From the NCBI RefSeq assembly GCF_003323745.1, contig NZ_QOIL01000009.1, forward strand, positions 1-64,000: DNA of 64,000 nt, in the 5' to 3' direction. The notes beneath the pieces are model-generated. The model did no database searches, was not told the origin of the DNA, and worked only from the letters and a program-made list of their open reading frames with translations. Source of the DNA: Sphaerisporangium album. Its GTDB lineage: Bacteria > Actinomycetota > Actinomycetes > Streptosporangiales > Streptosporangiaceae. Shown in pieces: positions 24,266 through 42,951 of this stretch. How positions within the stretch are numbered: position 1 is the first letter of the stretch; every line of letters starts with the position of its first letter. The position numbers and the translations under genes are program-made.

Positions 24266-24865
24266 TCAGAATGACAGAAGGTCGTCGGCGATGGCGAGGA
24301 GGCGGACGGCCGCCGCGTCCGACGGCCGGGCCCGTCCCGGCAGTCTCTCGCCGATCCTCCTGAGGAGCGTGTACGGGTCGCCCTCCGGCTCGCGCCGGCT
24401 GTTCCGCACCCGCAGCAGGAACTCCAGGCCGCAGGCGGCCTGGGTGGCGAACAGCCCCAGCAGGTCGATGTCGTCCAGATCGCTCCGGGACTCCGCGCGG
24501 TCCAGCACCTCCAGGACGCCGACGCACTCCTCGAACCGGATGAGCGGCGCGGCCATGATGGTGCGCGGCACGTAACCGGTGGACTCGGCGGCGTCCTGGG
24601 CGAACTGCGTCACCTCCGACACGTCGTCGGCGACCATGGACTGCCCGCTGGCCGCCACCCAGCCGGCGATCCCGGTTCCCGCCGGGAAGCGGCTCCCGAC
24701 CAGCTCTTTCTCCCCCTGGCCCGAGACGGCTTCGAAGACCAGCTCACCGGTGTCCGGGTCCACCAGGAAGATGGAGGCGGCGGCGGCGCCGAACATGTGG
24801 CGGGCCACCTCGACGATGGACTGCAGCAACTTGCGTTCGGTGCCGTCGAAGTCGTCAGGGGACAT
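24266..24865 (-). CDS. GAF-domain sensor protein
   Basis: The 199-residue protein is mostly one GAF domain: LQSIVEVARHMFGAAAASIF, GTGIAGWVAASGQSMVADDV and PLIRFEECVGVLEVLDR. GAF domains bind small ligands, including cyclic nucleotides. It has no output domain and overlaps the upstream protease gene by 11 bases. It is the last gene of the operon that begins with the leader-like peptide and includes a cyclase-type protein, so it may read a cyclic-nucleotide signal made there. That link is inference. Confidence 0.8.
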   Translation of the reverse strand: MSPDDFDGTERKLLQSIVEVARHMFGAAAASIFLVDPDTGELVFEAVSGQGEKELVGSRFPAGTGIAGWVAASGQSMVADDVSEVTQFAQDAAESTGYVPRTIMAAPLIRFEECVGVLEVLDRAESRSDLDDIDLLGLFATQAACGLEFLLRVRNSRREPEGDPYTLLRRIGERLPGRARPSDAAAVRLLAIADDLLSF

Positions 24866-25739
24866 GTGCCTCTCCGTTCTGCATCGTGTTGTCCGCCGCC
24901 AGATAGAGGACCGTCTTCAGCTGGAACGGCGTCATCCAGGGGTGCTTGCTGAGGATGAGGGCGCAGATGCCGGTGATGTGCGGCGCGGCGAAGCTGTTGC
25001 CGGTGCTGCGGATCTCCCGACCGCCGGGCCACGCGACCGGCACCTTCACCCCGCGCGCGTGGAACTCCGCGGGCGGCGCGGGGTTGTAGAAGTACGTCAT
25101 CGGGTCGGCCAGGTCATGGCTGGCCACGGAGACCACCGACGAGAACGTCCACGGGAAGCTGAGCACGGGCATGTTGTGCGCCGCGGCGATCAGCAGGCAA
25201 CGCCGGAAGTACGCGCGGTCGGCCAGTTCCTGGAGGGATTCCCTGAAGGTGGACCTCGTGGTGGAAAGGCTGAGGTTGATCAGGTCGAACCCCGCGTCGA
25301 TGGCCCATCTGAGCCCGGTGACGAGGGCACTGCCGCTGCCGGTCTTCCCGTCGGTGAGCACGCGCAGCGAGGTGAGCGACGCGCCGGGAGCGATCGACCT
25401 GATCACTCCGGCGCAGGCCGTGCCGTGCCCGGCGGGGTCGGCGGGGGCGCAGCCGGCGACCGTGAGCCCGCCCCCGTCGCCGCTGACGACCTCGTACGCC
25501 CGTTCCACGCCGCCGATCCTGGGATGGTCCGCGTCCACGCCCGTGTCCACCACGCACACGCGCGCACCGGTGCCGTCGGCCCCGCCCCAGGCCCACTCCT
25601 TGGTGACCCCCGCCAGCGGGCTGACCTCGAAACGCTCGGGGGCCTGCCGGGCGGTGGCCAGCCCCCACGCGGGCACCCCGGGAAAGTGGGCACGCTTCTC
25701 CCTGCGCCAGGGCGGTGTGCTCGTGGGCGTCATGGACAC
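24855..25739 (-). CDS. S8 family subtilisin-like serine protease without signal peptide
   Basis: The 294-residue protease has the full S8 triad: Asp 65 (CVVDTGVDADHP), His 105 (GHGTACAG) and Ser 249 (GNSFAAPHITG), with Asn 189 (AAAHNMPV) as the probable oxyanion residue. There is neither a signal peptide nor an obvious prodomain, so it should act inside the cell. It is coupled to the cyclase-ATPase gene (10-base overlap) and lies close to the RiPP precursor, making it a candidate leader peptidase or regulatory protease. A general intracellular role is also possible. Confidence 0.88.
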   Translation of the reverse strand: MSMTPTSTPPWRREKRAHFPGVPAWGLATARQAPERFEVSPLAGVTKEWAWGGADGTGARVCVVDTGVDADHPRIGGVERAYEVVSGDGGGLTVAGCAPADPAGHGTACAGVIRSIAPGASLTSLRVLTDGKTGSGSALVTGLRWAIDAGFDLINLSLSTTRSTFRESLQELADRAYFRRCLLIAAAHNMPVLSFPWTFSSVVSVASHDLADPMTYFYNPAPPAEFHARGVKVPVAWPGGREIRSTGNSFAAPHITGICALILSKHPWMTPFQLKTVLYLAADNTMQNGEAHVP

Positions 25740-28700
25740 GGCTCCCCCATCCAGTCGTGGACTCTGCGCGCCGGCAGGGTCGCGCCTTTGCCGAGATAGG
25801 CGTCGCGTGCGCGCCGGGCGGCGCCGGCCGGGTCGCGGCCGGCCGCCCGGTGGATCCGGGCGACCTCGAACAGGACGTCCCCCCGAAGGCAGGGGTCGTC
25901 GGTCGATTCGAGCAGTTCGCTGGCCCGCCCGGCGAGGCCGAGCGCCTCGGCGTGCGCGCCGTCGCGGGACGCGATGGCGGCCCTCGTCGCGACGGCCACC
26001 ACTTCGCCGCGGCGCTGACGCGGCCGGGCCTCGGGCCGCGCCAGCTCCAGGGCCGCCTGCCGCGCGTCCCCCCGCCGGAGCGTCTCGCGCGCCGCGTAGA
26101 CCTCCAGGGTGGCGGCGGGCGCCTCGTGTCCCGCCGTACGCAGGACGCCCGCGGCATGCGTGAACAGGCCGCGCGCGGCCTCGTGGTCCCCGTCCAGGGA
26201 CTCCACCAGCCCCCGTACCTGGACGACGGCGATCGCCGACAGGCCGAGGTCGAGTTCGTCCACGTAACGGGCGGCCGTACCGAGCGTCTCACGGGCGGTC
26301 ACGAGGTCGCCGGAGAGCGCGAGAAGGCGGGCTCTGGTGACGAGCACCGGCACCAGCAGAGCACGGTCGCCGGCGAATCGGCCCAGCAGGTCGGCGCAGA
26401 GCGCGAGCCCCTCCCGCGCCGGAGTGGGCGACCACTGCACCAGCTCGCACAGCCCGCCGAGCAGGCGGTCCTCCTCGTAGCGGTCCCCCATCGCCCCGGC
26501 CCGGCGGACCCCGTCGCGCAGTGCCCGGTCGGCGGCGCCGAAACGTCCGTCCTCGATGTGGACCCACGCTTCGAGCTGGTGGAACCGGCACCAGCTCAGC
26601 TCGTCCATGGGGTCGAGCTCCAGCAGCTCCCGGAGCGGCCGCAGCTCCGTCCTGCGGGCGCCCGAGCGAACGGCCAGGATCTCGCGTTGGATCGCACAGC
26701 TGAGCAGGTTGCGCGGATCGTCCGGCAGCAGGTCCTCCGCGCAGTCCAGGGCCGCGAGCGCCCGGGCGCCGTCCCCTCGTGCCAGTTCCGCGTCGCTGAT
26801 GCGCACGGCGAGCCGGCGGTGCTCCTCCCTGCCCCGGGGGAGCATCTCGCGGCCCCGTTCCAGCAGCGCGATCGCCGCGGGCAGGTCCTTGCGGTGCAAC
26901 GCCTGACCGCCCTCCCTGATGAGCGAGTCCGCGGCCCGGTCGGTCAGCTCGGGCAGGCACGGATCGCCGGGGCGCACCTCGCGGGTGAGCCGGCAGGCCG
27001 CCAGCAGGTGCTGACTGACGTCTCCCGAGGTCGACCCCGGGAACGGGACGTCGTCCGAGGCGGCGCGGGCCCGCTCGCCGAACCAGTCGGCAAGCCTGCG
27101 GTGCCAGTCCGCGCGCGCCTCCTTGCTGGTCATCGCGTAGACGGTCTCCCGGGTGAGGGTCTGGGTGAACTCGAACGCCCCCGGCAGCGCGCCGCGCCGG
27201 ATCAGCCGGTCGCGCTGGAGCCGTCGCAGGGGCACCGCCGTCGCGGGGGCGGTCGCGTCGCGCAGGGCCTCCACCTGTTCCAGCGTGAAGGTCTGCCCGA
27301 TGGTCGCCGCCCGTTCGAGGACCTCGCGCTCCGCGTCGCCCAGGCGGCCCAGCCGGGCCCCGAGCAGCGCCTGGATGGTGGGCGGCAGCGAGGCGGCGCC
27401 CTCGGCGAGGGTCTCCAGCATCAGCTCGGCGAAGAGCGGGTTGCCGTCCGAGCCGTCGATCACCCGCCGGGCCGTCCGGTCCATGGCGTCGTCGTGGGCG
27501 ACGACGTCCGCGCGTGCGGCGCAGAGCTCGGCGACCAGCCGCGCGAGGTCCGGCCGGCTCAGCGGGCCGAGCTCCAGCGACACGGCGCCGGCCATGTTCC
27601 TTCCCCAGGAGGGACGGATGTCGTAGAGCTCGGGCCGGGCGACGCAGACGAGGAGCACCGGCACGTCGGCGAGCCACGTCGCGCAGTCCTCGATGAGGTC
27701 GAGCAGTGTCGGCCCGGCCCACTGCAGGTTGTCCAGCACCACGACCAGCGGCCGGCGCCGGGCGAGGACCTCGAAGAACGACCGCACCGCCTGCGCGATC
27801 TCCGCCACCCCGGAGGTGTCCCCGTAGTCCGCGGCGCCCGAGCCGGCCAGCCCGCGCAACGCGCGCTCGGCGTCCGGGCCCACGGCCTCGGCGATGGCGG
27901 GCCAGTCGCCGTTGAGGGCTTCGAGCATCTCCGCGATCGGCCGGTAGGTGGCGCCGATGCCGTACGACGGGCAGCGGCCGGTGAGAACGGCGACGCCGTC
28001 GGGCAGGTTGTGCAGGAACTCCCTGGCCAGCCGCGACTTGCCGATGCCGGGCGCGCCGAGCAGGGTCGCCATGCCGAACCGCCGGTCGCGGACGACGCGT
28101 TCGTGGAGCCGCGTCAGCCGGCGCAGCTCCCCGGCGCGGCCGATCAGCGGGATCGCGCCGGTTCCCGGCTCCGCGCGATCCGGCTCCACGGCGACCAGCC
28201 GCCACGCCCGCACGGGATCGCGTTTGCCCTTGAGCCTCAGCGGGGGTACCTCGTCCAGCACCGCGTGGTGCCGGACGAGGCGGGCGACCTCGTCTCCCAC
28301 GAGGATCTCGCCGGCCTCGGCCGCGGACTGCAGGCGGCTCGCGGTGTTGACCGCGTCACCGATCACGCGCACGTCCGAGGCGGACGCGGCGACGACCACG
28401 ACCTCGCCGAAGGCGATGCCGCAGTGGGCGTCCAGCCGGATCTCGTGGGTCGGGGCGATCTCGGCGCTCAGGCGGTGCACCGCCGACATCGCCGCGTACG
28501 CGGCGAGGGCCGCCCGCAGCGCGTCGTCCTCCCGGCTGACGGGAACACCGAACACCGCCATGATGGCGTCGCCGATGTACTTCTCCAGGACGCCGCCGTG
28601 TTCGACGATCTCCGTCCTGCAGGCGGCGTAGTAGCGCTCCAGGATCCGCAGGAGCAGCTCCAGGTCGAGGCGCTCGGCGAGTTCCGTCGACCCGACGATG

Positions 28701-28756
28701 TCGATGAACAGCACCGCGATGTGACGACGGGCGGGTCGCGGGCCCCTGCCGGTCAT
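25730..28756 (-). CDS. Adenylate/guanylate cyclase - AAA ATPase - TPR signalling protein
   Basis: The 1008-residue protein begins with a class III nucleotide cyclase domain (VLFIDIVGSTELAERL with metal-binding Asp 19; EKYIGDAIMAVFG with Asp 63; VIGDAVNTASRL). An AAA/STAND-type ATPase follows, with Walker A GAPGIGKS at 234-241 and LVVVLDNLQWAGP, then about 500 residues of TPR-like helices. No C-terminal LuxR helix-turn-helix is present, unlike LAL regulators. Its ATG overlaps the stop of the leader-like peptide, so the two are translated together. A peptide- or protein-sensing switch is the likely role. Confidence 0.85.
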   Translation of the reverse strand: MTGRGPRPARRHIAVLFIDIVGSTELAERLDLELLLRILERYYAACRTEIVEHGGVLEKYIGDAIMAVFGVPVSREDDALRAALAAYAAMSAVHRLSAEIAPTHEIRLDAHCGIAFGEVVVVAASASDVRVIGDAVNTASRLQSAAEAGEILVGDEVARLVRHHAVLDEVPPLRLKGKRDPVRAWRLVAVEPDRAEPGTGAIPLIGRAGELRRLTRLHERVVRDRRFGMATLLGAPGIGKSRLAREFLHNLPDGVAVLTGRCPSYGIGATYRPIAEMLEALNGDWPAIAEAVGPDAERALRGLAGSGAADYGDTSGVAEIAQAVRSFFEVLARRRPLVVVLDNLQWAGPTLLDLIEDCATWLADVPVLLVCVARPELYDIRPSWGRNMAGAVSLELGPLSRPDLARLVAELCAARADVVAHDDAMDRTARRVIDGSDGNPLFAELMLETLAEGAASLPPTIQALLGARLGRLGDAEREVLERAATIGQTFTLEQVEALRDATAPATAVPLRRLQRDRLIRRGALPGAFEFTQTLTRETVYAMTSKEARADWHRRLADWFGERARAASDDVPFPGSTSGDVSQHLLAACRLTREVRPGDPCLPELTDRAADSLIREGGQALHRKDLPAAIALLERGREMLPRGREEHRRLAVRISDAELARGDGARALAALDCAEDLLPDDPRNLLSCAIQREILAVRSGARRTELRPLRELLELDPMDELSWCRFHQLEAWVHIEDGRFGAADRALRDGVRRAGAMGDRYEEDRLLGGLCELVQWSPTPAREGLALCADLLGRFAGDRALLVPVLVTRARLLALSGDLVTARETLGTAARYVDELDLGLSAIAVVQVRGLVESLDGDHEAARGLFTHAAGVLRTAGHEAPAATLEVYAARETLRRGDARQAALELARPEARPRQRRGEVVAVATRAAIASRDGAHAEALGLAGRASELLESTDDPCLRGDVLFEVARIHRAAGRDPAGAARRARDAYLGKGATLPARRVHDWMGEPCP

Positions 28757-28953
28757 ACGATCTTGAACTCCTGTCCTTCCACTTCACCCGCGGCGTCGTC
28801 CAGGCGCTTCTTGATGGAGTTCAGCAACGCGACCTCGGTCTCGGAGAGCTCGGCGAACACCCGTCGCTGCCGTTCGTCGAGCAGGTCGATGGGATGCCCG
28901 GCGGCGCGGAGCCTGCCCAGTGCGTCGAACGCGCCCGATCCGGTTCTGTCCAT
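28753..28953 (-). CDS. Leader-like peptide without a core, paralogous to the RiPP precursor leader
   Basis: This 66-residue peptide aligns without gaps to residues 3-52 of the precursor on the other strand (its residues 9-58), with 20 of 50 positions identical. These include FD, LR, AG, FA-L and EV-LL-S-K-RL. The precursor core (GGSCMCGAW...) is absent; this peptide ends EGQEFKIV. The ATG at 28951-28953 has AAGGAAG upstream, and the stop overlaps the cyclase ATG. It could be a decoy that binds the same leader receptor, a sensor subunit, or a decayed precursor. Confidence 0.75.
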   Translation of the reverse strand: MDRTGSGAFDALGRLRAAGHPIDLLDERQRRVFAELSETEVALLNSIKKRLDDAAGEVEGQEFKIV

Positions 28954-29157: not shown

Positions 29158-29206
29158 GCCCACGTTCGTGGGGTTGTGTCACCTTGTCGCGACCGGCCCA
29201 TACTCG
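29158..29206 (+). promoter_or_regulatory. Promoter and operator of the precursor-maturase operon
   Basis: A 26-base element (29158-29183) centred on the palindrome CCCACGTTCGTGGG (29160-29173) and running on as GTTGTGTCACC is identical, in reverse, to 40356-40381. After 15 variable bases both copies carry CATACTCG (here 29199-29206), a plausible -10 region. Further 5' leader matches (CTGC-ACACATC) follow. Transcription would start near 29211, some 33 bases before the precursor ATG. Confidence 0.8.
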
Positions 29207-29243: not shown

Positions 29244-29522
29244 ATGGCCTTCGATCCGAGGGAAGCTCTGCGGGACGCGGGTGTCCTGAGCGACCCGATC
29301 GCCGCGGAGGTCGAGGAGGCGTTCGCCACCTTGACCCATGAGGAAGTCGACCTGCTCATCTCCCTGAAGTCCCGGCTCCCCGCCGTCCTGCCCGAGGTGC
29401 TGGCGCGCTCCCCGCAGGCCGGAGAGTGGGCCACCCCCGAGGTGGTGGCGCACGTCGACGAGGCCCCGAGCATAGGCGGATCGTGCATGTGCGGCGCCTG
29501 GTCCGGGTCCGGATCGGGCTGA
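29244..29522 (+). CDS. RiPP precursor peptide
   Basis: The 92-residue peptide has an acidic helical leader (FDPREALRDAGVLSDPIAAE, then LTHEEVDLLISLKSRL). A short linker leads to a C-terminal core of small residues, GGSCMCGAWSGSGSG (residues 78-92; Cys 81, Cys 83, Trp 86). GAGAGGTGAAGGC precedes the ATG. It sits just before radical SAM, PqqD-like and FAD enzymes and shares its promoter element with the YcaO/TfuA operon. Cys/Ser/Gly are typical YcaO targets and Trp or Cys are typical radical SAM-SPASM targets. The exact cleavage site is unknown; one after residue 79 or nearer residue 75 is possible. Confidence 0.85.
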   Translation: MAFDPREALRDAGVLSDPIAAEVEEAFATLTHEEVDLLISLKSRLPAVLPEVLARSPQAGEWATPEVVAHVDEAPSIGGSCMCGAWSGSGSG

Positions 29523-29542
29523 TCCGGTCCGAACGGTTGAAC

Positions 29543-29594
29543 GGAGGCGGCCCCGGCCGCATGTCGCGGGACAGAACGGTCCGGGGCCGCCTCC
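29543..29594 (+). terminator. Strong hairpin between precursor and maturase (attenuator)
   Basis: Perfect 14-bp arms (GGAGGCGGCCCCGG at 29543-29556, CCGGGGCCGCCTCC at 29581-29594) enclose 24 bases with a small inner stem (CCGC/GCGG). There is no T-run. Placed 20 bases after the precursor stop, it probably lets most transcripts end there, giving excess precursor over enzymes. Confidence 0.75.
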
Positions 29595-29619
29595 ACCGCT
29601 GGATCACGAAGGGGAACGG

Positions 29620-31080
29620 ATGTCCGGGAAGCTGGCGAGAAATCCCGCCTTGTTCGATGTACCAGAAGACCTCACCTACTTCGTGCACGACGAGGACTAC
29701 CTGGTGGTCAACCCGAATGTGGGCGGCCGGTGTGTCCTCGACGCGCGTGAGTTCGCCATCCTCCAGGCCCTGGCCCGTCCCCGGGCGAGCGGAGAGCACG
29801 CGCGGCTCGAAGAGACCCGCGAAACCGATCGGGCCCTCGGAAGAATGATCCTGAACTGGATCGTCTATTACAACGGAATTCGCCCGCAGAGCCGGTTCGT
29901 AGAACCTCCGCTGCGGCAGGTGTACTACGCCGTCACCGACGGCTGTAATCTTCGCTGCCCCTACTGTTACGCCTCGTCCGAGAAATGCCTGCCGGGCGAG
30001 CTCACCACCGCGGAATCGCTCGCCCTGATCGACCAGATCGCCGATTTCGGGGCCGAGGTCCTGATTTTCACCGGCGGCGAGCCGATGCTCAGGAAAGACC
30101 TGTTCCAATTGGTCGAGCACGCCAACGGCCGCGGCCTGAAGTCGAACATCGTCACCAACGCCACGATGATCAGGAAGCCCGCGGCGGCGCGGCGGTTCGC
30201 CGAGCTGTTCAACTCCGTGACGGTGAGCGTGGACGGCGGCACGGCCGACACGCACGACCGCACCCGGGGCGCCGGCGCCTTCGCGAAGACCCATCGCGCC
30301 CTCCAACTGCTCAACGAGGCCGGTGTGGTGCCGAAGATCAACCACATCGTCACCTCGGAGAACGTCGACGAGCTGGAGGACTTCGCGCTCTTCGTCGAGG
30401 GGCTGGAGGTCGACAGCATCCGGCTGATGTACCACAACAATCTGGGCCGCGGGGAGACCGACGACTACGACTTCGGCTGGCAGGACCATCTGAAAATCCA
30501 GGAGATCGCCTGGACGTCGCCGGCCGCCGGCAAGCTGAGGCCCGACGGGCCGAGACCCGTCTCGCCGTGCTCGGTCAGGGGCAACTGCGGGATGGGCGGC
30601 AACGAGATCTACATCAACTCGCTCGGCGACGTCTACCCGTGCAAGCTCGTCACCGGGCGGGCGCACTACGCGGGCAACGTCAGGCGGCAGTCGCTGTCGG
30701 AGGTCTTCGCCAGCCCGGTCCTTCGCGACATGCGCACCAGCACGGTGTTCGGCGGCGACTACCACGCCGACTGCGCGAAGTGCTACATCAAGGCGTCCTG
30801 CGGCGGAGGCTGCCGCGCCGCGCACATGGCGGAGTCCAAGGACCTGCGGCGCAACAGCCGCCACCAGTGCCGGATCCTGCGGCACGGCGTCGCCACGCAG
30901 CTCTGGCTGGAGGCGGGCGTCAGCCCCTCCGAGCTCGCCAAGAAGAACTTCACGATGACGACGCCGCACCTGGTCGTCAACGACGACGTGCACCCGGTCT
31001 TCGACGACTGGAAGACCTATGTTCCCCCCTCGCCCAAAGCCGTCAGGATCGGCGAGCTGCTTCCCATAACGCCGGCATAG
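29620..31080 (+). CDS. Radical SAM-SPASM peptide maturase
   Basis: The 486-residue enzyme has the radical SAM cluster motif CNLRCPYC (Cys 109, 113, 116) and FTGGEPM. A C-terminal SPASM domain carries many cysteines for auxiliary Fe-S clusters (CSVRGNCGMGG, VYPCKL, CAKCYIKASCGGGC, HQC). The first 90 residues look like a divergent PqqD/RRE leader-binding fold (FVHDEDYLVVNPNVGGRCVL). AAGGGGA precedes the ATG. Such enzymes make thioether or carbon-carbon/ether crosslinks in peptides. The likely substrate is the Cys/Trp core just upstream. Confidence 0.92.
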   Translation: MSGKLARNPALFDVPEDLTYFVHDEDYLVVNPNVGGRCVLDAREFAILQALARPRASGEHARLEETRETDRALGRMILNWIVYYNGIRPQSRFVEPPLRQVYYAVTDGCNLRCPYCYASSEKCLPGELTTAESLALIDQIADFGAEVLIFTGGEPMLRKDLFQLVEHANGRGLKSNIVTNATMIRKPAAARRFAELFNSVTVSVDGGTADTHDRTRGAGAFAKTHRALQLLNEAGVVPKINHIVTSENVDELEDFALFVEGLEVDSIRLMYHNNLGRGETDDYDFGWQDHLKIQEIAWTSPAAGKLRPDGPRPVSPCSVRGNCGMGGNEIYINSLGDVYPCKLVTGRAHYAGNVRRQSLSEVFASPVLRDMRTSTVFGGDYHADCAKCYIKASCGGGCRAAHMAESKDLRRNSRHQCRILRHGVATQLWLEAGVSPSELAKKNFTMTTPHLVVNDDVHPVFDDWKTYVPPSPKAVRIGELLPITPA

Positions 31081-31092
31081 CGGAGGTGGAGT

Positions 31093-31371: not shown

Positions 31372-31416
31372 GGCGGCCACCGACCCGGCCCGGCCGGCCG
31401 TGCTGACCGCGCGCCC

Positions 31417-32850
31417 GTGAACAGGGCGATCGTCCTCGGCGGGGGCTTCGCGGGGGTGCTGGCCGCCGCCGTGCTGGCCCGGCACGCGGACGACGTCATC
31501 CTGATCGAGACCGACCGTTACCCGCCCGGCCCCCGCCCCCGGCGGGGGCTGCCCCAGTCCCACCACAACCACGTGCTCGTGACCGGCGGCGCGAGGGCGC
31601 TGCAGGCGCTGCTTCCCGGCACCCTTGAGGCGCTCTACGCGCGCGGGGCGCACCGGCGGGGCCTGTCCGGCGGTGCGCTGATCCTCGCCGCGCAGGGATG
31701 GTTCCGGCGCATCGACACCGAGGCCTACCTCGTCGCGTGCAGCCGGGGACTGCTTGACCAGGTGGTGCGGGAGCGGGCGCTGGGCGGCGGCGCCGTCTCG
31801 GTGTGGGAGGGGGCGCAGGCGCTGGGGCTGGTGGGGGACGCGACCCGGGTCACCGGCGTCCGTGCCGGGCGCGTGGGAGGTCCGGCGCGGACCTTCCAGG
31901 CCGATCTCGTCGTGGACGCGACGGGGCGCAGGTCCAAGGCGCCCCGGTGGCTGGCCGAGCTCGGAGCACCGGACGTCGAGGAGGCCGGCGTCACCTCGGG
32001 CCTGGCGTACTCCACACGGGTCTACCAGGCGCCTCCCGAACTCGCCGGCGGCGTACCGGCGATCATGATCCATCCCGGCCCGGCGCAGGGGCGGCCGGCG
32101 CAGGGGGCGACGCTGTTCCCGATCGAGGACGACCGGTGGGTCGTCACCCTGACCGGCACCAGGGGTGGCGAGCCGCCGGCCGACGAGCAGGGCTTCACGC
32201 GCTTCGCGCGCTGCCTGCGCCACCCGATCGTGGCGGACCTCATGGCGGCGGCCACGCCCCTCGGCGGCGTCAGGCCCTACCGCGACACCGCGAACAGGCG
32301 GCGCTTCTACGAACGCGCCCGCCTGCCCGCCGGCTTCCTCGCGACGGGCGACGCGGTCGTCGCGGTGAACCCCGTCCACTCGCACGGGATGTCCGTCGCC
32401 GCGCTGGGCGCGCTCAGGCTGGACAGGGAGCTGACCCGGCGCGGGTTCGACCCGTCCCTCACCCCGGACCTTCAGGCCGCCGTGGCGGCGGAGGCGGAGA
32501 CGTCGTGGCGGATGGCCGTCCGGCAGGACGGCGGGCACGCCGGCGGAGCGGACGAGCGGCGGGAGGCGTCCGCGTTCGAGCGCCGGATCCGGACCCGTCT
32601 GGCCCGGGCGGCGCTGAGCAGCCCGGAACTCGCGGCCGACCTCTTCCACGCCCAGACGCTGATCCAGGCGGAGGCCCGGACGGACACGTCGTCGCGGTCG
32701 CGGGCGCTCAGGGGCGAGCCGGATCCCCTGCTCTCGTCGCCGGAGGCGATCGCGCAGTTCCCGGGCCTTCACGCGTGGTGGCTCTCGCGGTCGATCCCGC
32801 CGGTCACGCCGGTCCGCGTGCCCGTGGGCGGTGAGATCCCCCGGCGATGA
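31417..32850 (+). CDS. FAD-dependent oxidoreductase of the halogenase/hydroxylase-like group
   Basis: The 477-residue flavoprotein has an N-terminal dinucleotide-binding motif (AIVLGGGFAGVLAAAVLARH), the VVDATGRRSKAPRW segment and a C-terminal GDAVVAVNPVHSHGMSVAAL FAD motif. This is the fold of aromatic hydroxylases, flavin halogenases and geranylgeranyl reductases. The WxWxIP motif of classical tryptophan halogenases is not seen, so hydroxylation or epoxidation is more likely. The GTG start lacks a clear ribosome site. Its 3' end overlaps the convergent LuxR gene by 47 bases. It probably tailors the peptide. Confidence 0.78.
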   Translation: MNRAIVLGGGFAGVLAAAVLARHADDVILIETDRYPPGPRPRRGLPQSHHNHVLVTGGARALQALLPGTLEALYARGAHRRGLSGGALILAAQGWFRRIDTEAYLVACSRGLLDQVVRERALGGGAVSVWEGAQALGLVGDATRVTGVRAGRVGGPARTFQADLVVDATGRRSKAPRWLAELGAPDVEEAGVTSGLAYSTRVYQAPPELAGGVPAIMIHPGPAQGRPAQGATLFPIEDDRWVVTLTGTRGGEPPADEQGFTRFARCLRHPIVADLMAAATPLGGVRPYRDTANRRRFYERARLPAGFLATGDAVVAVNPVHSHGMSVAALGALRLDRELTRRGFDPSLTPDLQAAVAAEAETSWRMAVRQDGGHAGGADERREASAFERRIRTRLARAALSSPELAADLFHAQTLIQAEARTDTSSRSRALRGEPDPLLSSPEAIAQFPGLHAWWLSRSIPPVTPVRVPVGGEIPRR

Positions 32851-33526: not shown

Positions 33527-33655
33527 GTGACCTTCCGATTTGAGCGAGTTTGCGCGACCGGCTCATTATGCGCATTCACCGCGTCGGACCACCAGAGCAC
33601 GGAGCGTACTCATGCCGCCCGCCCTGGTGGATCGGCCCTGACGTTTTCCGGGCGC

Positions 33656-34690: not shown

Positions 34691-34703
34691 CGGCTGCTCC
34701 CTT

Positions 34704-35960
34704 TCAACGTTCGCGAGGGCGCCGCACCAGCACGGGCAGGCGGCGTACCCCGTGCAGGAACAGGTCCGGCGTCCATCGCAGGTCGGCGGGGTCGACCGCC
34801 AGGGCCAGGTCCGGGAAGCGGCGCACCAGCGTGCCGATGGCGGCCCGGGCCTGCATCCGCGCCAGGGCCGCGCCGAGGCAGAAGTGGATGCCGTGGCCGA
34901 AGCCCAGATGCCGGTTCGGGTCGCGGCCGATGTCAAAGACGTCCGGCCGCGGGAACACCGCCGGGTCGCGGTTGGCCGCCAGCAGCACGGGCACGACGAT
35001 GTCACCGCGGGGGATCACGGTCCCCCCGATCTCGACGTCGGCCAGCGCGTACAGCGGCCGCGAGTGCCCGACGGGGCCGTTGAACCGCGCGGCCTCCTCG
35101 ACCATGGAGTCGATCATCCCCGGTCGCGCGCGCAGCCGCGTGAGCTGTTCGGGGTGGCGCAGCAGTTCGAGCACTCCGTTGCCGATGAGGTTGACCGTCG
35201 TCTCGTCTCCGGCGAACAGCAACTGGAACACGCTGGATATCAGCTCGACGTGGCTGATGTCGCCGGTCCGCTCGGCCTGGAGCAGCCGGGACAGCAGGTC
35301 CTCCCGCGGGCGGGCCCGCCGCTCGTCGATCCTCTCCTCGACGTACGCGACGAATTCCATCCCGGCCGCGCGCACCCGGGCCACGTCCCGGCCGCGCAGC
35401 ATGTCGTCGCTCCACCGGCGCAGCCGCGCCCGGTCCGCGTGCGGGAAGCCGAGCAGCTCGGCGACGATCAGGATCGGCAGCGGCAGGGCCAGCGCCTCGA
35501 TGAGGTCCACCTCGCCGTCCGCGCCCGCCGGGTCGTCGGCCAGATGGTCCGCCAGGTCGTCGGCGAGCCCGGCGACGACCTGGCGGACGCGCCGGTCGAG
35601 CGCCGCCGTCGCCCGGGGGCCGAACGCGGGCGCCATCAGCCGCCGCAGCCGGGTGTGGTCCGGCGGATCGAGGTTGAACATGTTCCGTCTCACCATCGCC
35701 AGCGGGTCACCGTCCTGCCCGCGGTGGAGCGCGGCGAGCTCGTCGGGCAGCCGGTCGAGCTGCCGCCCGATCTCCGGGTCGAGGAGCGCGCGCCGCACGT
35801 CCGCGTACCGGGTCAGGTACCAGAACGCGCGGCCGGTCGCCGGGCTCGCGTGGCGGTGGACGGGGGCCCGTTCGCGCATCCGGTGGAAGAGCGGATGCGG
35901 GTCGGGACGGTGCCGCGGGGCGGTCGGGTCGAACGACCGGCCGAGCGTGGTCGCGGTCAT
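34704..35960 (-). CDS. Cytochrome P450, RiPP tailoring
   Basis: A complete 418-residue P450 with I-helix AGDETT (250-255), K-helix EAAR (289-292) and heme loop FGHGIHFCLG (Cys 361). It is typical of secondary-metabolite P450s. It has no ferredoxin of its own in the cluster; the nearest candidate in the window is at 5325-5525. It lies between tfuA-like and methyltransferase genes, so it should oxidise the peptide or a crosslinked intermediate. Confidence 0.92.
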   Translation of the reverse strand: MTATTLGRSFDPTAPRHRPDPHPLFHRMRERAPVHRHASPATGRAFWYLTRYADVRRALLDPEIGRQLDRLPDELAALHRGQDGDPLAMVRRNMFNLDPPDHTRLRRLMAPAFGPRATAALDRRVRQVVAGLADDLADHLADDPAGADGEVDLIEALALPLPILIVAELLGFPHADRARLRRWSDDMLRGRDVARVRAAGMEFVAYVEERIDERRARPREDLLSRLLQAERTGDISHVELISSVFQLLFAGDETTVNLIGNGVLELLRHPEQLTRLRARPGMIDSMVEEAARFNGPVGHSRPLYALADVEIGGTVIPRGDIVVPVLLAANRDPAVFPRPDVFDIGRDPNRHLGFGHGIHFCLGAALARMQARAAIGTLVRRFPDLALAVDPADLRWTPDLFLHGVRRLPVLVRRPRER

Positions 35961-36009
35961 CGGCCTCTCCTCACGCGTGCGCGGCCACCCGGCCGCGCGC
36001 GACGATCGC

Positions 36010-37332
36010 TCAACGCCCGGTCGACGCGCGGGCGTTCTGGACGTCCAGGGCGAAGAACCGTCTGGCGACGCGGCCCAGGTCCTCCAGCCCGCGAAACCCC
36101 CGCCTGGCCATCTCGACCTGCGCCGACGTGCCCTTCCGCTGCCAGCGGCGCAGGAAGAACCTTCCGCAGATCTCCGGCGACGGGACGACCACCCGGTCGC
36201 GCGTCCGTTCGGCGACCTCGTCGGCGCGGGCCACCGTCGCGGCCCACTCGTCCAGGCGGCCCGACTCCCGGAGCCGCGCGAGGACGTGCGGCCTCCAGTC
36301 GGCCGACTGCCAGACCGGCCACACCCGCACCATGACCGTCCGCAGCAGCTCGGCGGGGGGCAGCGTGTCCGGCTCCGTCCCGGTGAGCCACGACGCGAGG
36401 GCGGGCGGCGGCGCGGAGCGGCCGTCGGCCCCGAGCCTGGCGCGGGCGTACGCCTCCACGTCCGTGCCGCGCTCGCGGGCGAAGTCCTCCAGCAGACCGG
36501 TCAGGACCTCCTCGTGCAGCCGGGGGTAGTCGTCGCCGAAGAGCCGCGCCGCGTTCAGGGCGTCGAGATCGGACATCCACCGGCCGGGCGCGTACTCGCG
36601 CGTCGACCGCCATTTCAGCGCCTCGTAGTGGGTGATCCCCGTCAGAGCGGACCGGGCCTCCCACGCCGTGGACGCCTCGTCCGGGCGGTCGCCGGCCGCT
36701 CTCAGCGCGGCCACCGCGTCCAGCCGCTTCAGGTCCCACTCCCCCGAGCCGATCATCCGCCGGAGCGTGCTCAGCGCCTCGTGGTCCTCCGGGCCGAGCT
36801 CCTGTTCCAGCTCATGCCAGGTCCGGTGGGTGAAGGGCCGGCGCTTCGCCGCCTCGACGATCCGCTCACCGGCCGCGGCGGGGACGAGATCGGTCCTCGC
36901 ACCCTCCTGGCAGCCGTAGCGGACGTTCACCATCGCCACCGTGCCGACGGGGTAGCCCACGTCGGCGGGCCCGTGCAGCACCGCGACCTCGTCGTCCCCG
37001 TCGACCTCCCCCGTCGCGTACATGCGGAACACGGCCCCGGCGCCCCTCATGCCGTACGGGCTCAGCTCCGCCGCCCGCAGCGCGCCCATGCTCGCCGCGC
37101 CGATGACGTTCACGCCCTCGTCGAGCAGCCACAGGATCTCCTTGTGGCCCACCGAAAGCCGCTCGCGGTAGTAGCCGTCGATGATGACGGCGGTGTCGTC
37201 GCGGTTCCACCCTTCCCTGAGCAGGTCCCCCCGGGCCACGGGTGGCCGCACCCGGGCCTCCGGGACCACGCCGAGCACCTGGTCCTCGGAGATCGTCGGA
37301 CCGGCGTAGACGACGACCTTGCGGGGGCTCAT
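36010..37332 (-). CDS. TfuA-domain protein, YcaO partner for thioamide formation
   Basis: The 440-residue protein starts with a TfuA-like core: KVVVYAGPTISEDQVLGVVP, NVIGAASMGALRAAELSPYG and MYATGEVDGDDEVAVLHG. A helical extension of about 250 residues follows. TfuA proteins pair with YcaO enzymes to convert backbone amides to thioamides, as in archaeal methyl-CoM reductase and thioviridamide-type peptides, probably by handling sulfide. Its ATG shares one base with the YcaO stop. The long C-terminal extension is unusual and may bind the leader. Confidence 0.88.
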   Translation of the reverse strand: MSPRKVVVYAGPTISEDQVLGVVPEARVRPPVARGDLLREGWNRDDTAVIIDGYYRERLSVGHKEILWLLDEGVNVIGAASMGALRAAELSPYGMRGAGAVFRMYATGEVDGDDEVAVLHGPADVGYPVGTVAMVNVRYGCQEGARTDLVPAAAGERIVEAAKRRPFTHRTWHELEQELGPEDHEALSTLRRMIGSGEWDLKRLDAVAALRAAGDRPDEASTAWEARSALTGITHYEALKWRSTREYAPGRWMSDLDALNAARLFGDDYPRLHEEVLTGLLEDFARERGTDVEAYARARLGADGRSAPPPALASWLTGTEPDTLPPAELLRTVMVRVWPVWQSADWRPHVLARLRESGRLDEWAATVARADEVAERTRDRVVVPSPEICGRFFLRRWQRKGTSAQVEMARRGFRGLEDLGRVARRFFALDVQNARASTGR

Positions 37333-38483
37333 CAGAACACCTCCGGGCGCACGCGGCTGCCGGGCGCCACCACACGGACGACGGGGACCCCGATGTCCTC
37401 CCTGGTCAGGTCGATGACGACGGGCGCGTGCGCGAACGCGACCGCCGCCCGCTTGACCACGTCCTCCAGGTCGTCTACCAGGCTCCCGTGCGCCCGCAGC
37501 GTCTGGATCGGCTCGCCGGGACCCGCCGCCGGGACGGGCGCCGCGTCCTTGTGGAAGTCCGGCAGCAGGTCGTCCCGCGCGCCGGAGATGTAGCCCAGCC
37601 TCGCCTGCGCGGCCTCGGTGACGGCCCGGGTGAGCGCTATCTCGGAGCTGAGATGGCAGCCGTACCCCACGAACCCCGGAGGGTAGTCATCGCAGGAGAC
37701 GCGGGCGAGGAAGCACGGCAGCTCCGTGGGCGACGGCAGGGACCTGACCTCCAGCCGGACCCGGGCCCGCGCCGTCATCGCGCACAGCTCGCCGACGACC
37801 GGCGACCCCGACGTCTCCGGGTCGACGAGGACGCCCCGGTCGCCGCCGCTGATCGCCGTCGTCACGGCATCCCTCTCGACCACCTCGTACAACGCGTGCA
37901 GGACGGCCTCGGCCACCGTGTTCCCGCTGGCCAGGCCGTTGGTCGACTCGAAGAACGCCGGAGGGTTCCAGCCCGCCCTGCGCACCAGCGAGAACCCCAC
38001 CACGTCCGCGGGAACGAGCGTCTCCGCGCCGTCGACCAGCGACCTGCCGGCGACCCAGTCCAGCGGCAGCCCATCGTGCAGCACGGTCGGCGTGGAGAGC
38101 GGCAGGTCGCGGACGTCGTAGCCCAGCCGCCCGGCGACCTCGCGCGGCGGCGCCGTCGCCACGGGGCAGAGGGGTTGCTCCGCGTGCCACAGCTCGACGG
38201 CCTCCATCATCGCCGACAGCCTCGCCAGCTCCGGAGTGACCCCCTTGCCCTGCGAGACGGCGAGCGTCCTGGACGTCGGTCTGATGGCCTGGAAGGTCGG
38301 GATTCCTATGGTGTCGAGGAGGGTGATGTCCGCGACCCGGGTGACGCCGACCCTCCGCGCCGCACGACCGGCCATCTCCAGCGTGGCCGCCGGATCGTGG
38401 GCTCTGTCCGTGCCGGGCAGCCGCACCTTGGAGCGGTCGGAGTCGGAGAAGATCCACGAGAAGGAGGAGTTGTCTGTCCGCAT
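37332..38483 (-). CDS. YcaO-domain ATP-dependent peptide backbone enzyme
   Basis: The 383-residue YcaO has the ATP-binding signatures LSAMMEAVELWHAEQ and ALYEVVERDAV. It activates a backbone amide with ATP. The C-terminus (RVRPEVF) lacks the PxPxP tail of azoline cyclodehydratases, and no ThiF/ocin-ThiF partner or dehydrogenase is encoded nearby, so with the adjacent TfuA it more likely makes thioamides than azoles. The ATG at 38483 has an AAGGG-containing ribosome site. Confidence 0.9.
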   Translation of the reverse strand: MRTDNSSFSWIFSDSDRSKVRLPGTDRAHDPAATLEMAGRAARRVGVTRVADITLLDTIGIPTFQAIRPTSRTLAVSQGKGVTPELARLSAMMEAVELWHAEQPLCPVATAPPREVAGRLGYDVRDLPLSTPTVLHDGLPLDWVAGRSLVDGAETLVPADVVGFSLVRRAGWNPPAFFESTNGLASGNTVAEAVLHALYEVVERDAVTTAISGGDRGVLVDPETSGSPVVGELCAMTARARVRLEVRSLPSPTELPCFLARVSCDDYPPGFVGYGCHLSSEIALTRAVTEAAQARLGYISGARDDLLPDFHKDAAPVPAAGPGEPIQTLRAHGSLVDDLEDVVKRAAVAFAHAPVVIDLTREDIGVPVVRVVAPGSRVRPEVF

Positions 38484-38505
38484 CGTCCCTTGCCCTTGTA
38501 CGGGG

Positions 38506-39318
38506 TCAGATGTTGCGCGCGCGGTTGAGCAGGCCACGGCCGCCCACGGTGTAGCCGATGGCCGCCATGACGGCCAGCACGAGCAGGTCCGGCCACGCGT
38601 CGCCGAAACCGAAGATCGCGGCGTCCCGCATGCCGTTGATCGCGTACGTCAGCGGGTTGACCACCGACACCCACTGCAGCACCGTCGGCATGCTGTCGAA
38701 GGTGTAGAGCGACGGGGCGCTGAAGACCAGGACGGGCATCGACACGTTCGAGAGCACCATGAACGCCTGGAAGTCCGTGATCGTGATGGCCGCCGCCAGG
38801 TACAGCCCGTTGAAGGCCAGGGCCGCCAGCGTGAGCGCGGCCAGCAGGCCCACCCAGCCCTCCCAGCCGAATGGGAAGTCGAAGATGAGCACCGCCGCGG
38901 CGAGGCCCAGCAGGCTCTGGCCCAGCACGAGCGACACTCCGGCGATCATCTTGCCCAGCAGGAACCGCGACCTGCGCATCGGGTAGGACCACAGCTGGGT
39001 CGCCACCCCGCTCAGCTCCTCCTGGAACAGCGCCATGCCGGACGTGCCCGCCGCGCTGACGACCGACATCCCCAGCGTCATCGGCAGGAGGAAGACCGCG
39101 AACCCGACCTGGACGCCCTTGTAGCCGACGACCTGCACGAGGTTGCTCAGCGAGGTGTTCACCAGCAGCAGGTACACCAGCATCGGCGTCAGGCCGAGGA
39201 TGAGGTACACCCGGTTGCGGGCGAGCAGCGCGTACTCGCGGTAGACCACCGCCGACAGGTCGGCCGTCTTCGCGACCGCGACGGGTGGAGTGTGGGTGAA
39301 CTGCAGTTTTTCGGTCAT
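38506..39318 (-). CDS. ABC-2 type permease (DrrB-like), peptide export or immunity
   Basis: The 270-residue protein has six predicted membrane helices and the ABC-2 pattern (ATQLWSYPMRRSRFLLGKMI; VNPLTYAINGMRDAA near the C-terminus). It starts one base after the ATPase stop. As part of the YcaO operon it most likely exports the product and gives self-resistance. Confidence 0.88.
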   Translation of the reverse strand: MTEKLQFTHTPPVAVAKTADLSAVVYREYALLARNRVYLILGLTPMLVYLLLVNTSLSNLVQVVGYKGVQVGFAVFLLPMTLGMSVVSAAGTSGMALFQEELSGVATQLWSYPMRRSRFLLGKMIAGVSLVLGQSLLGLAAAVLIFDFPFGWEGWVGLLAALTLAALAFNGLYLAAAITITDFQAFMVLSNVSMPVLVFSAPSLYTFDSMPTVLQWVSVVNPLTYAINGMRDAAIFGFGDAWPDLLVLAVMAAIGYTVGGRGLLNRARNI

Positions 39319-39319
39319 C

Positions 39320-40297: not shown

Positions 40298-40332
40298 CCC
40301 GGCCTCTTTTTCCCTGGGGATGTGTCGCAGAC

Positions 40333-40381
40333 CGAGTATGACCTGGCGATAAATAGGTGACACAACCCCACGAACGTGGGC
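40333..40381 (-). promoter_or_regulatory. Promoter and operator of the exporter-YcaO-TfuA operon
   Basis: Positions 40356-40381 are the exact reverse complement of 29158-29183, including the palindrome CCCACGTTCGTGGG. The -10-like CATACTCG lies at 40333-40340 on the minus strand, at the same 15-base distance as in the other copy. A conserved CTGC-ACACATC follows in the leader. This ties both halves of the cluster to one regulator. Confidence 0.8.
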
Positions 40382-40541
40382 TACCAATATCGCTCCCGGG
40401 CTCGTCGGGAACCGGACGCGTGCCGACGGACATTTTTGACCAGGGGCGAAATTCTCATCTCGGATGCCCGTCAATCCAGGTCAACCCTTATTCAACGAAA
40501 TCCGGGCCGCGCCGCATATGCCGAACGACAGAGGAGTGATT

Positions 40542-40664
40542 GTGCCGCCTCGCCGGTCCGTTGACCATCGGCGCATGGACGACTACACCGCGAGCGGCCG
40601 GCGTGAACCGCTGATCAGCCGCACTCCGCCGCCGGCGATCGGAGCGCACGTGGATCGAAGCTGA
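40542..40664 (+). CDS. Possible small peptide gene upstream of the ATP-grasp-SARP gene
   Basis: A 40-residue frame (MPPRRSVDHRRMDDYTASGR, then REPLISRTPPPAIG) starts at a GTG with a good ribosome site (AGGAG at 40532-40536, five-base spacing). It has no Cys and no similarity to the precursor leader. It could be a leader peptide for regulation, a small protein, or chance. Apart from it, the stretch 40382-40719 shows no gene. Confidence 0.35.
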   Translation: MPPRRSVDHRRMDDYTASGRREPLISRTPPPAIGAHVDRS

Positions 40665-40719
40665 TCCACCGCCCCTCGAAGCCACGTCCGTTTGGGAGAC
40701 CCGAGGCGGTGGACTGCCA

Positions 40720-42624: not shown

Positions 42625-42687
42625 AGTCGATTCAGAGGCACTTCCACCAGCCGCCTCCAGTCACGGCGATCGGACCAAGGAATTCAC

Positions 42688-42951
42688 ATGAGTCTCACTT
42701 CCGAAGACCTGATAAATGATCGCGACAGATCACTGATCGTCATGCTGGCCCGGGGTTACACGACAACCAGAATCGCCCGCGAGATGCACCTCAGCAGATA
42801 TACGGTGGCGGAGCGGATAAGCAAGCTTCTCGACCAGTTCGCCTGCAGCAACCGCAGCCAGCTCGTCGCGTACTCCTACGCCCACGAGCTCCTGCGCGTC
42901 GGTATCTGGCCTCCCAGCGCCCCCAACGTGATCGGCGAGGGCGTGTTCTGA
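42688..42951 (+). CDS. Small stand-alone LuxR-type helix-turn-helix protein
   Basis: The 87-residue protein consists almost only of a GerE/LuxR DNA-binding domain (LIVMLARGYTTTRIAREMHL, then YTVAERISKLLDQF) with a short tail. AAGGA precedes the ATG. It follows the ATP-grasp-SARP gene by 63 bases and is probably the last regulator of the RiPP cluster. No receiver or ligand domain is present. Confidence 0.82.
   Translation: MSLTSEDLINDRDRSLIVMLARGYTTTRIAREMHLSRYTVAERISKLLDQFACSNRSQLVAYSYAHELLRVGIWPPSAPNVIGEGVF

What the first reader, a model, noticed from the sequence alone, without database searches (positions are those of the whole stretch)
24266..42951. Hybrid RiPP cluster combining radical SAM-SPASM, YcaO/TfuA, ATP-grasp-SARP, P450, methyltransferase and flavoenzyme
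A precursor with a Gly/Ser/Cys/Trp core sits with three different classes of peptide-backbone or side-chain maturases that rarely occur together. Established: SPASM enzymes make crosslinks, YcaO with TfuA makes thioamides, RimK/MvdD-like ATP-grasps form amide or ester bonds. Inference: the product is a crosslinked, thioamidated and further oxidised/methylated peptide of about 15-20 residues. I recognise no described class with this gene set.
Basis: partly seen in the sequence, partly recalled or inferred. Interest (0 to 1): 0.92.

Follow-up and report, generated by a model that had tools for sequence, protein, structure and literature searches.

The report
Hybrid sactipeptide-thioamide peptide gene cluster
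A soil actinobacterium carries a conserved gene set that appears to turn one small protein into a sulfur-bridged, thioamide-bearing, oxidised peptide, next to a second peptide gene that tracks a different enzyme; most enzymes belong to known families, but the product is unknown.

Summary
The gene set is real and forms one conserved cluster. Precursor and radical SAM enzyme belong to the known StsA/StsB sactipeptide family. YcaO/TfuA belongs with them: of 297 genomes of the same family, all 26 with this TfuA also carry this StsB. Celeribacter persicus has a bare operon StsA-B-C-flavoenzyme-YcaO-TfuA. One 25-bp operator precedes both half-clusters in the window; the genome shows no other near match.

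The flavoenzyme is a Lsd18/MonCI-type epoxidase; it goes with a core Trp in 36 of 36 clusters, and 14 clusters of the Streptomyces sparsogenes type have neither. The ATP-grasp is probably not a third StsA maturase: it follows a second leader-bearing peptide (28753-28953) ending phi-Lys-phi-phi, in 39 of 39 genomes with ATP-grasp and leader domain, 0 of 9 with the leader domain alone.

Genome mining has noted such gene sets (PMC8120280, PMC8939145). I found no characterised product in the library searched. Predicted product: sactionine-bridged, thioamidated, Trp-oxidised peptide, further oxidised and O-methylated in many members. All chemistry is inferred.

The parts
29244..29522 (+). StsA-type precursor: aroma-sacti leader domain, WxxPE-V-x-A-H segment, core ...SCMCGAWSGSGSG
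   Evidence: NF045559 E 4e-40 and NF045560; core C-x-C-[GSA]-x-W-S-G-[SA]-G in relatives
29620..31080 (+). StsB radical SAM/SPASM sactipeptide maturase
   Evidence: NF045574 912 bits, cut-off 625; PF04055 + PF13186
31093..31371 (+). StsC, stand-alone PqqD-type RiPP recognition element
   Evidence: PF05402 E 2.4e-12
31417..32850 (+). Flavin-dependent enzyme of the Lsd18/LasC-MonCI epoxidase family
   Evidence: profile search E 7e-128 to Lsd18; AF2 model pLDDT 87, Foldseek E 7.5e-51, 41-42% identity
32804..33526 (-). LuxR-type response regulator
   Evidence: GerE E 3e-18
33656..34690 (-). O-methyltransferase (PF00891; nearest solved relative CalO6)
   Evidence: found only where the P450 is found
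34704..35960 (-). Cytochrome P450
   Evidence: PF00067; in 30 of 36 type II loci
36010..37332 (-). TfuA with C-terminal extension
   Evidence: PF07812 E 1.6e-40; solved TfuA matches residues 5-213 only; NF033432 165 bits, below cut-off 235
37332..38537 (-). YcaO, thioamidation type by pairing and homology
   Evidence: PF02624 227 bits; nearest solved relative MJ1094
38506..39318 (-). ABC transporter permease (presumed exporter)
   Evidence: PF01061
39320..40297 (-). ABC transporter ATPase (likely start at 40297; listed ORF runs to 40474)
   Evidence: PF00005; promoter alignment
29159..29183 (+). 25-bp operator CCCACGTTCGTGGGGTTGTGTCACC upstream of stsA
40356..40380 (-). Identical 25-bp operator upstream of the ABC-YcaO-TfuA-P450-MT operon
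28753..28953 (-). Second precursor-like gene: same leader domain, EVEGQ, C-terminal EFKIV (listed ORF runs to 29076)
   Evidence: NF045560 78 bits; tail conservation
25730..28756 (-). Adenylate-cyclase/AAA protein (resembles TOMM kinase/cyclase, below its cut-off)
24855..25739 (-). Subtilase, candidate leader peptidase
   Evidence: PF00082; below-cut-off matches to mycosin and QhpE
24266..24865 (-). GAF-domain protein
   Evidence: PF01590
40720..42624 (+). ATP-grasp peptide ligase fused to a SARP activator
   Evidence: TIGR04187 104 bits, below cut-off 350; BTAD; AMdnB, CdnC and AfsR among solved relatives
42688..42951 (+). Small LuxR-type HTH protein, candidate operator-binding regulator
   Evidence: GerE; in 25 of 25 related loci; it and the operator are both missing in Celeribacter L160

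Best explanation
The locus holds two modules that share a leader type. Module A (29244-32850 plus 33656-40297) makes a hybrid RiPP from StsA: StsC binds the WxxP leader segment, StsB installs Cys-to-alpha-carbon (sactionine) bridges in the C-x-C-G-x-W-S-G-S-G core, YcaO/TfuA converts one or more backbone amides to thioamides, the Lsd18/MonCI-type flavoenzyme oxidises the core Trp (most simply by 2,3-epoxidation of the indole), the P450 and then the O-methyltransferase add a further oxygen and methyl in the members that have them, and the ABC transporter exports the product. The subtilase may cut after a [EV]-x-[AG]-[HQ] motif, giving VDEAPSIGGSCMCGAWSGSGSG here. Module B (ATP-grasp/SARP, 28753-28953 peptide, AAA/cyclase, subtilase, GAF) handles a second peptide ending phi-Lys-phi-phi, on whose Lys the ATP-grasp probably acts. 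Shown: family membership, co-occurrence, shared operator, Trp/flavoenzyme and Lys-tail/ATP-grasp associations. Inferred: every chemical step, their order, the cleavage site and the regulator.
For: Precursor and StsB over NCBIfam cut-offs. In 297 family genomes: StsB over cut-off in 30, of which 27 are of the window's type; close TfuA in 26, all among these 27; none without. Celeribacter persicus L160: contiguous StsA-B-C-FAD-YcaO-TfuA, no P450 or MT in the 21-kb locus and no ATP-grasp in that genome. Identical 25-bp operators before both operons; for its first 20 bases (ninth free) the only sites in 9.3 Mb with fewer than 3 mismatches; operator before stsA in 33 of 34 named type II loci and 0 of 14 type I loci. 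Flavoenzyme in 36 of 36 type II and 0 of 14 type I loci (the types were first named by this gene, and the StsB tree then gave them as two clades); Trp in the core of 36 of 36 type II precursors and 0 of 14 type I. MT with P450 in 24, P450 alone in 6, neither in 6, MT alone in 0. ATP-grasp versus Lys tail: 39 of 39 against 0 of 9; 13 genomes have ATP-grasp and leader gene without type II StsB.
Against: No product is known. Type I and type II StsB are two clades split once, so the Trp/flavoenzyme association is one evolutionary event; the tree tool warns that the long Celeribacter branch may be misplaced. Cores in clusters with and without YcaO/TfuA do not differ in any diagnostic residue, so no thioamide site can be assigned. 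Lsd18/MonCI enzymes are known for alkenes of polyketides (recalled), not peptides. YcaO, TfuA and ATP-grasp scores lie below the NCBIfam equivalog cut-offs. In Winogradskya and Actinoplanes (L157-L159) the operator stands only before stsA, not before the ABC-YcaO run. ATP-grasp is present in 26 of 27 type II genomes (in trans in Microbispora and S. melleum) and in 4 of 4 Streptomyces checked, so a role on StsA is not excluded; 2 of 41 ATP-grasp genomes (G087, G166) have no leader domain. The Lys pattern was relaxed after some tails proved to lack the acid, and the search profile was built from Lys-tailed seeds.
Confidence: 0.7

Rival explanations
1. Two unrelated clusters lie side by side: an StsABC sactipeptide cluster and a YcaO/TfuA thioamide cluster with its own precursor.
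For: The two halves lie on opposite strands in the window, and StsB exists without YcaO/TfuA in type I, in Nonomuraea candida and in four Streptomyces.
Against: 26 of 26 TfuA genomes have linked StsB; one-run arrangements in Celeribacter L160 and Winogradskya L157; identical operators. The one small ORF examined near the ABC start (40464-40664) is not kept as a protein over its length: by eye, the DNA there is about equally conserved in all frames and breaks down in Herbidospora.
Confidence: 0.04
2. The ATP-grasp is a third maturase of StsA, forming a lactam or ester in the same peptide.
For: Present in 26 of 27 type II genomes, inside the cluster in 16 of 25 loci, fused to a probable pathway activator.
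Against: Absent from Celeribacter and from Spongiactinospora sp. TRM90649 (G121), whose StsA cores are ordinary; away from StsA and beside the Lys-tail peptide in Microbispora and S. melleum; in 13 leader-domain genomes without type II StsB; 39 of 39 versus 0 of 9 link to the other peptide's Lys tail.
Confidence: 0.12
3. StsB in this clade makes a different crosslink (for example Cys to Trp or beta-carbon) rather than sactionines, because Trp now stands where type I cores have other residues such as Leu or Phe.
For: An invariant Trp next to C-x-C in type II cores, none in type I; two StsB clades.
Against: NF045574 covers both and window StsB scores 912 bits against 625; radical SAM and SPASM cysteines are invariant in the eight-row alignment.
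Confidence: 0.2
4. YcaO installs azolines or another amide activation product, not thioamides.
For: The core has Cys and Ser; a thioamide site is not identifiable.
Against: YcaO is next to TfuA in the three layouts looked at gene by gene (window, Celeribacter, Winogradskya). After the generic YcaO domain model, the best curated match is the McrA-glycine thioamidation YcaO; the only TfuA match is its McrA thioamidation partner (both below cut-off); nearest solved relatives are MJ1094 and a TfuA-domain protein. No ThiF-like or SagB-type dehydrogenase domain among the window cluster proteins scanned.
Confidence: 0.15

Closest known systems
StsA/StsB/StsC sactipeptide cluster of Streptomyces sparsogenes (Precord et al. 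2023, recalled; StsC binding of WxxP in PMC12710340, passages)
   Same: StsB family, stand-alone PqqD RRE, WxxP leader segment, C-x-C core, ABC transporter
   Different: S. sparsogenes StsA (L161) lacks the aroma-sacti leader domain and the core Trp; its 21-kb locus has no flavoenzyme, YcaO, TfuA, ATP-grasp, close P450 or close MT
TfuA/YcaO gene-cluster families with rSAM from Sphaerisporangium, Microbispora and Herbidospora (Malit et al. 2021, PMC8120280, passages)
   Same: Same genera; YcaO, TfuA, SPASM rSAM, PqqD, P450, O-methyltransferase, Cys/Ser precursor
   Different: There annotated as putative ranthipeptides; the passages read do not mention StsB, a flavoenzyme, an operator, a second peptide or an ATP-grasp in these clusters
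Branch 6 ATP-grasp loci (PMC8939145, passages)
   Same: ATP-grasp with SPASM, YcaO, TfuA and adenylate cyclase
   Different: There no precursor was found in most loci; here a leader-bearing peptide with an invariant tail Lys is tied to the ATP-grasp. That the window's ATP-grasp falls in branch 6 was not tested
Lsd18/LasC and MonCI epoxidases
   Same: 41-42% and 36-37% identity, same fold over nearly the full length
   Different: Encoded in a RiPP cluster, presumed peptide substrate
Thioamitides and thiovarsolins (PMC6511847, abstract and passages)
   Same: YcaO plus TfuA proposed to thioamidate a ribosomal peptide
   Different: The words 'sacti' and 'P450' do not occur in that paper's main text

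Membership tests
Sactipeptides of StsA/StsB type | Maturase over the StsB cut-off | tested here: met
   912 bits, cut-off 625
Sactipeptides of StsA/StsB type | Precursor over the StsA cut-off with C-x-C core | tested here: met
   136 bits, cut-off 75; CMC
Sactipeptides of StsA/StsB type | Stand-alone RRE and WxxP in leader | tested here: met
   PF05402; WATP; motif meaning from PMC12710340; binding itself not tested
Sactipeptides of StsA/StsB type | Cys sulfur to alpha-carbon bonds in product | not testable with these tools
   needs mass spectrometry and NMR
TfuA/YcaO thioamidated RiPPs | Adjacent ycaO and tfuA | tested here: met
   36010-37332 and 37332-38537
TfuA/YcaO thioamidated RiPPs | Thioamidation-type YcaO and TfuA by curated cut-off | tested here: inconclusive
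   TIGR03266 204 bits (cut-off 365) and NF033432 165 bits (cut-off 235), models made for McrA thioamidation
TfuA/YcaO thioamidated RiPPs | Thioamide in product | not testable with these tools
   needs mass spectrometry
Graspetides | ATP-grasp over a curated peptide-maturase cut-off | tested here: not met
   TIGR04187 104 bits (cut-off 350); MvdC 81 bits (cut-off 425); MvdD 60 bits (cut-off 475)
Graspetides | Cognate precursor with acceptor and donor residues | tested here: inconclusive
   Lys invariant in the second peptide's tail, acidic residue not invariant
Lsd18/MonCI flavin epoxidases | Full-length sequence and fold match | tested here: met
Lsd18/MonCI flavin epoxidases | Epoxidation activity | not testable with these tools
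   needs assay
Qhp (CTQ) maturation system | QhpG- and QhpE-type partners over cut-off | tested here: not met
   QhpG 31.5 bits (cut-off 240), QhpE 97 bits (cut-off 165); flavoenzyme far closer to Lsd18

The most novel reading that the evidence does not exclude
A polyether-type flavin epoxidase has been recruited to epoxidise the indole of a Trp in a ribosomal peptide, inside a peptide that also carries sactionine bridges and backbone thioamides, and producers make a second peptide with the same leader whose tail Lys is modified by a transcription-factor-fused ATP-grasp, so that the two peptides share a protease and perhaps a regulatory circuit.
Probability: 0.3. Interest if true: 0.85.

Novelty: new variant of a known kind. 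Interest (0 to 1): 0.62.

Why it matters
Two peptide-modifying chemistries of known enzyme families would meet in one small core, with natural variants lacking YcaO/TfuA (Nonomuraea candida, Streptomyces), P450 (Celeribacter and others) or methyltransferase that let each step be read out by comparison. The ATP-grasp/Lys-tail rule proposes a precursor for ATP-grasps in complex YcaO/TfuA-associated loci, for most of which PMC8939145 found none (passage), and it can be tested with one enzyme and one 66-residue peptide.

Tried and rejected
Rejected: ORF 33576-34361 as the methyltransferase (no family hit; the real frame is 33656-34690). Rejected: a separate precursor for YcaO at 40464-40664 (judged by eye over 13 regions). 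Rejected: Qhp-like (CTQ) logic for the flavoenzyme and subtilase, my own first idea from weak hits; the flavoenzyme is far closer to Lsd18/MonCI. Led nowhere: comparing cores with and without YcaO/TfuA to find the thioamide site; PHROGs for the two peptides; solved structures for the P450, which gave many relatives and no substrate hint.

Paper searches (ten in all) gave no characterised product for this cluster among the titles and abstracts listed; one search listed 12 of 95 and one search listed 10 of 109 papers. Only five papers were opened, none whole. The library holds open-licence PMC papers only.

Rows and counts: of the 80 loci, 48 entered the comparison: 34 type II (L129-L160, L173, L176) and 14 type I (L161-L172, L174, L177). 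The other 32 (L175, L178-L208; 24-35% identity) were not used. The window and L049 were added to the 34 for the counts of 36. Before the ABC operon the script found the operator in 21 of 34; of the other 13, three loci end before or at that start (L131, L133, L136), one has a site just outside the script's limits (L143), one has it before an stsA copy that heads the run (L176), four Streptomyces lack that operon, Celeribacter has no site, and L157-L159 have the operon without a site. Chance rate in that script: 1 hit in 386,064 shuffled bases; a few extra 2-3-mismatch hits lie elsewhere in the loci. In one search, YcaO is missing in L136 because the locus ends.

Tail test: my first pattern required an acidic residue (33 of 67 distinct tails, StsA tails included); it was relaxed to the Lys after G044, G112, G152 and G153 lacked the acid. 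A genome counted as Lys-tailed if any of its leader genes was; G081, G112 and G129 also have other tails. Of the 20 short regions, six new ATP-grasp genomes (G044, G064, G084, G093, G112, G153) and six without it (G001, G013, G059, G074, G180, G227) came after the Lys idea was formed, and all 12 fitted the Lys rule (three of them only without the acid). L250 (G204, below the domain cut-off) gave no tail. Two leader hits left unread in G003 and G009 were read: no Lys tail. ATP-grasp absence was tested at E 1e-20 in eight of the nine negatives and at 1e-40 only in G013.

Full report
What is there. The precursor 29244-29522 and the radical SAM enzyme 29620-31080 exceed NCBI's cut-offs for the StsA-related sactipeptide precursor (136 bits, cut-off 75) and the StsB maturase (912 bits, cut-off 625); 31093-31371 is a PqqD-type recognition element. 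On the minus strand an ABC transporter, YcaO, TfuA, P450 and O-methyltransferase form one run. An ATP-grasp fused to a SARP activator and a small LuxR protein follow on the plus strand. To the left lie GAF, subtilase and AAA/cyclase genes and a short gene, 28753-28953, that bears the same leader domain as StsA (NF045560).

One cluster, not two. Among 297 genomes of the same family, StsB is over its cut-off in 30; 27 are of the window's type and three (G013, G153, G283) are not. The close TfuA occurs in 26 genomes, all among those 27, and it is linked to StsB in each: the 25 relatives carry StsB within the stretch of 17-20 kb taken, and the window itself. In 394 genomes drawn from the class, 5 exceed the StsB cut-off, all members of this family; the named search nevertheless finds relatives in Streptomyces, Actinoplanes, Winogradskya and Celeribacter. 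In Celeribacter persicus, an alphaproteobacterium, the run is StsA-B-C-flavoenzyme-YcaO-TfuA and no other gene of the window's cluster was found at useful identity in the 21-kb locus; transposase-like genes upstream were recognised by eye only. In Winogradskya consettensis ABC, YcaO, TfuA, P450, MT, StsA, StsB, StsC and the flavoenzyme run in one direction.

Shared operator. The sequence CCCACGTTCGTGGGGTTGTGTCACC occurs twice in the window, 60 bp before stsA and 58 bp before the likely start of the ABC-YcaO-TfuA-P450-MT operon, and, at up to 6 mismatches, in none of five shuffles. For its first 20 bases with the ninth free, the genome of 9.3 Mb has only these two perfect sites; the next six have three mismatches (control pattern: one hit). 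It precedes stsA at 67-73 bp (from the end of its first 18 bases) in 33 of 34 named type II loci, not in Celeribacter, and stands before stsA in 0 of 14 type I loci. It was found before the ABC operon in 21 of 34; in L157-L159 that operon has none. The small LuxR protein is in 25 of 25 loci and, like the operator, missing in Celeribacter; that it binds the site is inference.

Two kinds of StsB cluster. I first named the types by presence of the flavoenzyme; the StsB tree (49 rows) then separated them in one split with 100/100 support, with a warning that the long Celeribacter branch may be misplaced. Type I (14 loci, including S. sparsogenes) has StsB, StsC and an ABC transporter, and short precursor candidates without Trp in the core (0 of 14). 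Type II has the leader domain, a core C-x-C-[GSA]-x-W-S-G-[SA]-G and the flavoenzyme in 36 of 36, against 0 of 14 for the flavoenzyme in type I. YcaO/TfuA is absent at two places within type II: Nonomuraea candida and four Streptomyces. Their cores look the same as those with YcaO/TfuA, so the thioamide position cannot be read from sequence. The methyltransferase never occurs without the P450 (24 both, 6 P450 alone, 6 neither), as expected if it methylates an oxygen the P450 installs.

The flavoenzyme. A profile of 21 members matches Lsd18/LasC (E 7e-128) and MonCI (E 2e-118) far better than any halogenase (best E 1e-10). The model (mean pLDDT 87) matches Lsd18 at Foldseek E 7.5e-51, 41-42% identity. 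Among the residues of the core, the indole of Trp is the natural target for an epoxidase; this is inference from family chemistry (recalled) and from the single-split association above.

The ATP-grasp belongs elsewhere. It is in 41 of 297 family genomes (E <= 1e-40), 39 of which carry the aroma-sacti leader domain over its cut-off (48 genomes do); two (G087, G166) do not. Thirteen of the 39 have no type II StsB. In the four Microbispora genomes fetched and in S. melleum it sits away from StsA in a module with SARP, leader peptide, AAA/cyclase, subtilase and GAF; in three more Microbispora it lies on the contig of the leader gene, not of StsA. The leader peptide ends in a hydrophobic-Lys-hydrophobic-hydrophobic tail (last position also Ala) in 39 of 39 genomes with ATP-grasp and leader domain, and in 0 of 9 leader-domain genomes without ATP-grasp, which end GGLLF, GAALF, SFW, LFW or GLW apart from Cys-bearing and other precursors. 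One type II genome, G121, lacks the ATP-grasp, and its leader peptide ends VGGLLF while its StsA is ordinary. Outside the family, four Streptomyces have the ATP-grasp and leader peptides ending NLKLL or DLKLL, whereas Celeribacter has neither ATP-grasp nor a Lys-tail peptide in its locus. Related genomes are not independent, so the Fisher value (6e-10) is only a guide, and my search profile was made from Lys-tailed seeds. The acid residue two before the Lys is common, not invariant, so a Glu-Lys lactam is only one option.

Known or new. Malit et al. 2021 (PMC8120280; abstract, outline and passages) describe two TfuA cluster families from Sphaerisporangium, Microbispora and Herbidospora with a SPASM enzyme, stand-alone PqqD, P450 and O-methyltransferase, read by antiSMASH as ranthipeptides. 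PMC8939145 (passages) describes branch 6 ATP-grasps with SPASM, YcaO, TfuA and adenylate cyclases, mostly without precursors; I did not test whether the window's ATP-grasp is one. PMC12710340 (passages and two of three parts of the reference list) shows StsC binding the WxxP segment of StsA. PMC6511847 (abstract, outline, passages) and PMC9231227 (passages) were also opened. The sactionine finding for S. sparsogenes StsB is recalled from Precord et al. 2023, not held. In the papers opened and the listings of the ten searches (Tried and rejected) I saw no characterised product and no mention of the flavin epoxidase in such a cluster, the operator, or the ATP-grasp tail rule; that library is partial and most listed papers were not opened.

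Verdict. A real, conserved hybrid of two known RiPP types with an unusual oxidase, sitting between the halves of a second peptide module. New variant of a known kind; the chemistry is a set of testable predictions.

Noticed in passing
28753-28953: Short gene with the StsA-type leader domain and conserved C-terminal EFKIV ([EDN]-x-K-x-x in most relatives), first gene of a run with AAA/cyclase, subtilase and GAF.
   Followed up: yes
L151:20915-21454 (minus strand): In this Streptomyces one open frame holds both the small LuxR-type HTH and the leader domain with tail NLKLL, as if regulator and second peptide were fused; L152-L154 look alike.
   Followed up: partly
L221, L223, L225, L226, L230: Other precursors with the same leader domain but cores such as NNNNCLC, SNNNTVC and NLINSLC, mostly beside the AAA/subtilase/GAF/ATP-grasp genes: probably further peptide types on the same leader.
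   Followed up: partly
L224, L246, L222: Leader-domain genes with tails IIGGLLF, SFW, LFW and GLW, and Cys-bearing precursors (L224, with two weakly StsB-like radical SAM genes nearby), in two genomes without the ATP-grasp.
   Followed up: no
L160:9490-15608: Celeribacter persicus carries the bare six-gene version, GC 0.559 against 0.61 in the flanks, with IS-like genes upstream (by eye): a likely horizontal transfer.
   Followed up: partly
L151:13164-15014, L157:13051-14922, L046:16042-17886: An S9 (prolyl oligopeptidase-like) peptidase gene follows the flavoenzyme in Streptomyces and Winogradskya, and by likeness of its start in Spongiactinospora L046; an alternative leader or core peptidase.
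   Followed up: partly
L066 (G000:C11:1-14000): The window's genome has a second YcaO-TfuA pair (35-39% identity) and three further YcaO genes.
   Followed up: no
8001-10000: GC drops to 0.62 against about 0.71 on either side; a helix-turn-helix regulator gene with weak codon bias lies there; it may be foreign DNA.
   Followed up: no
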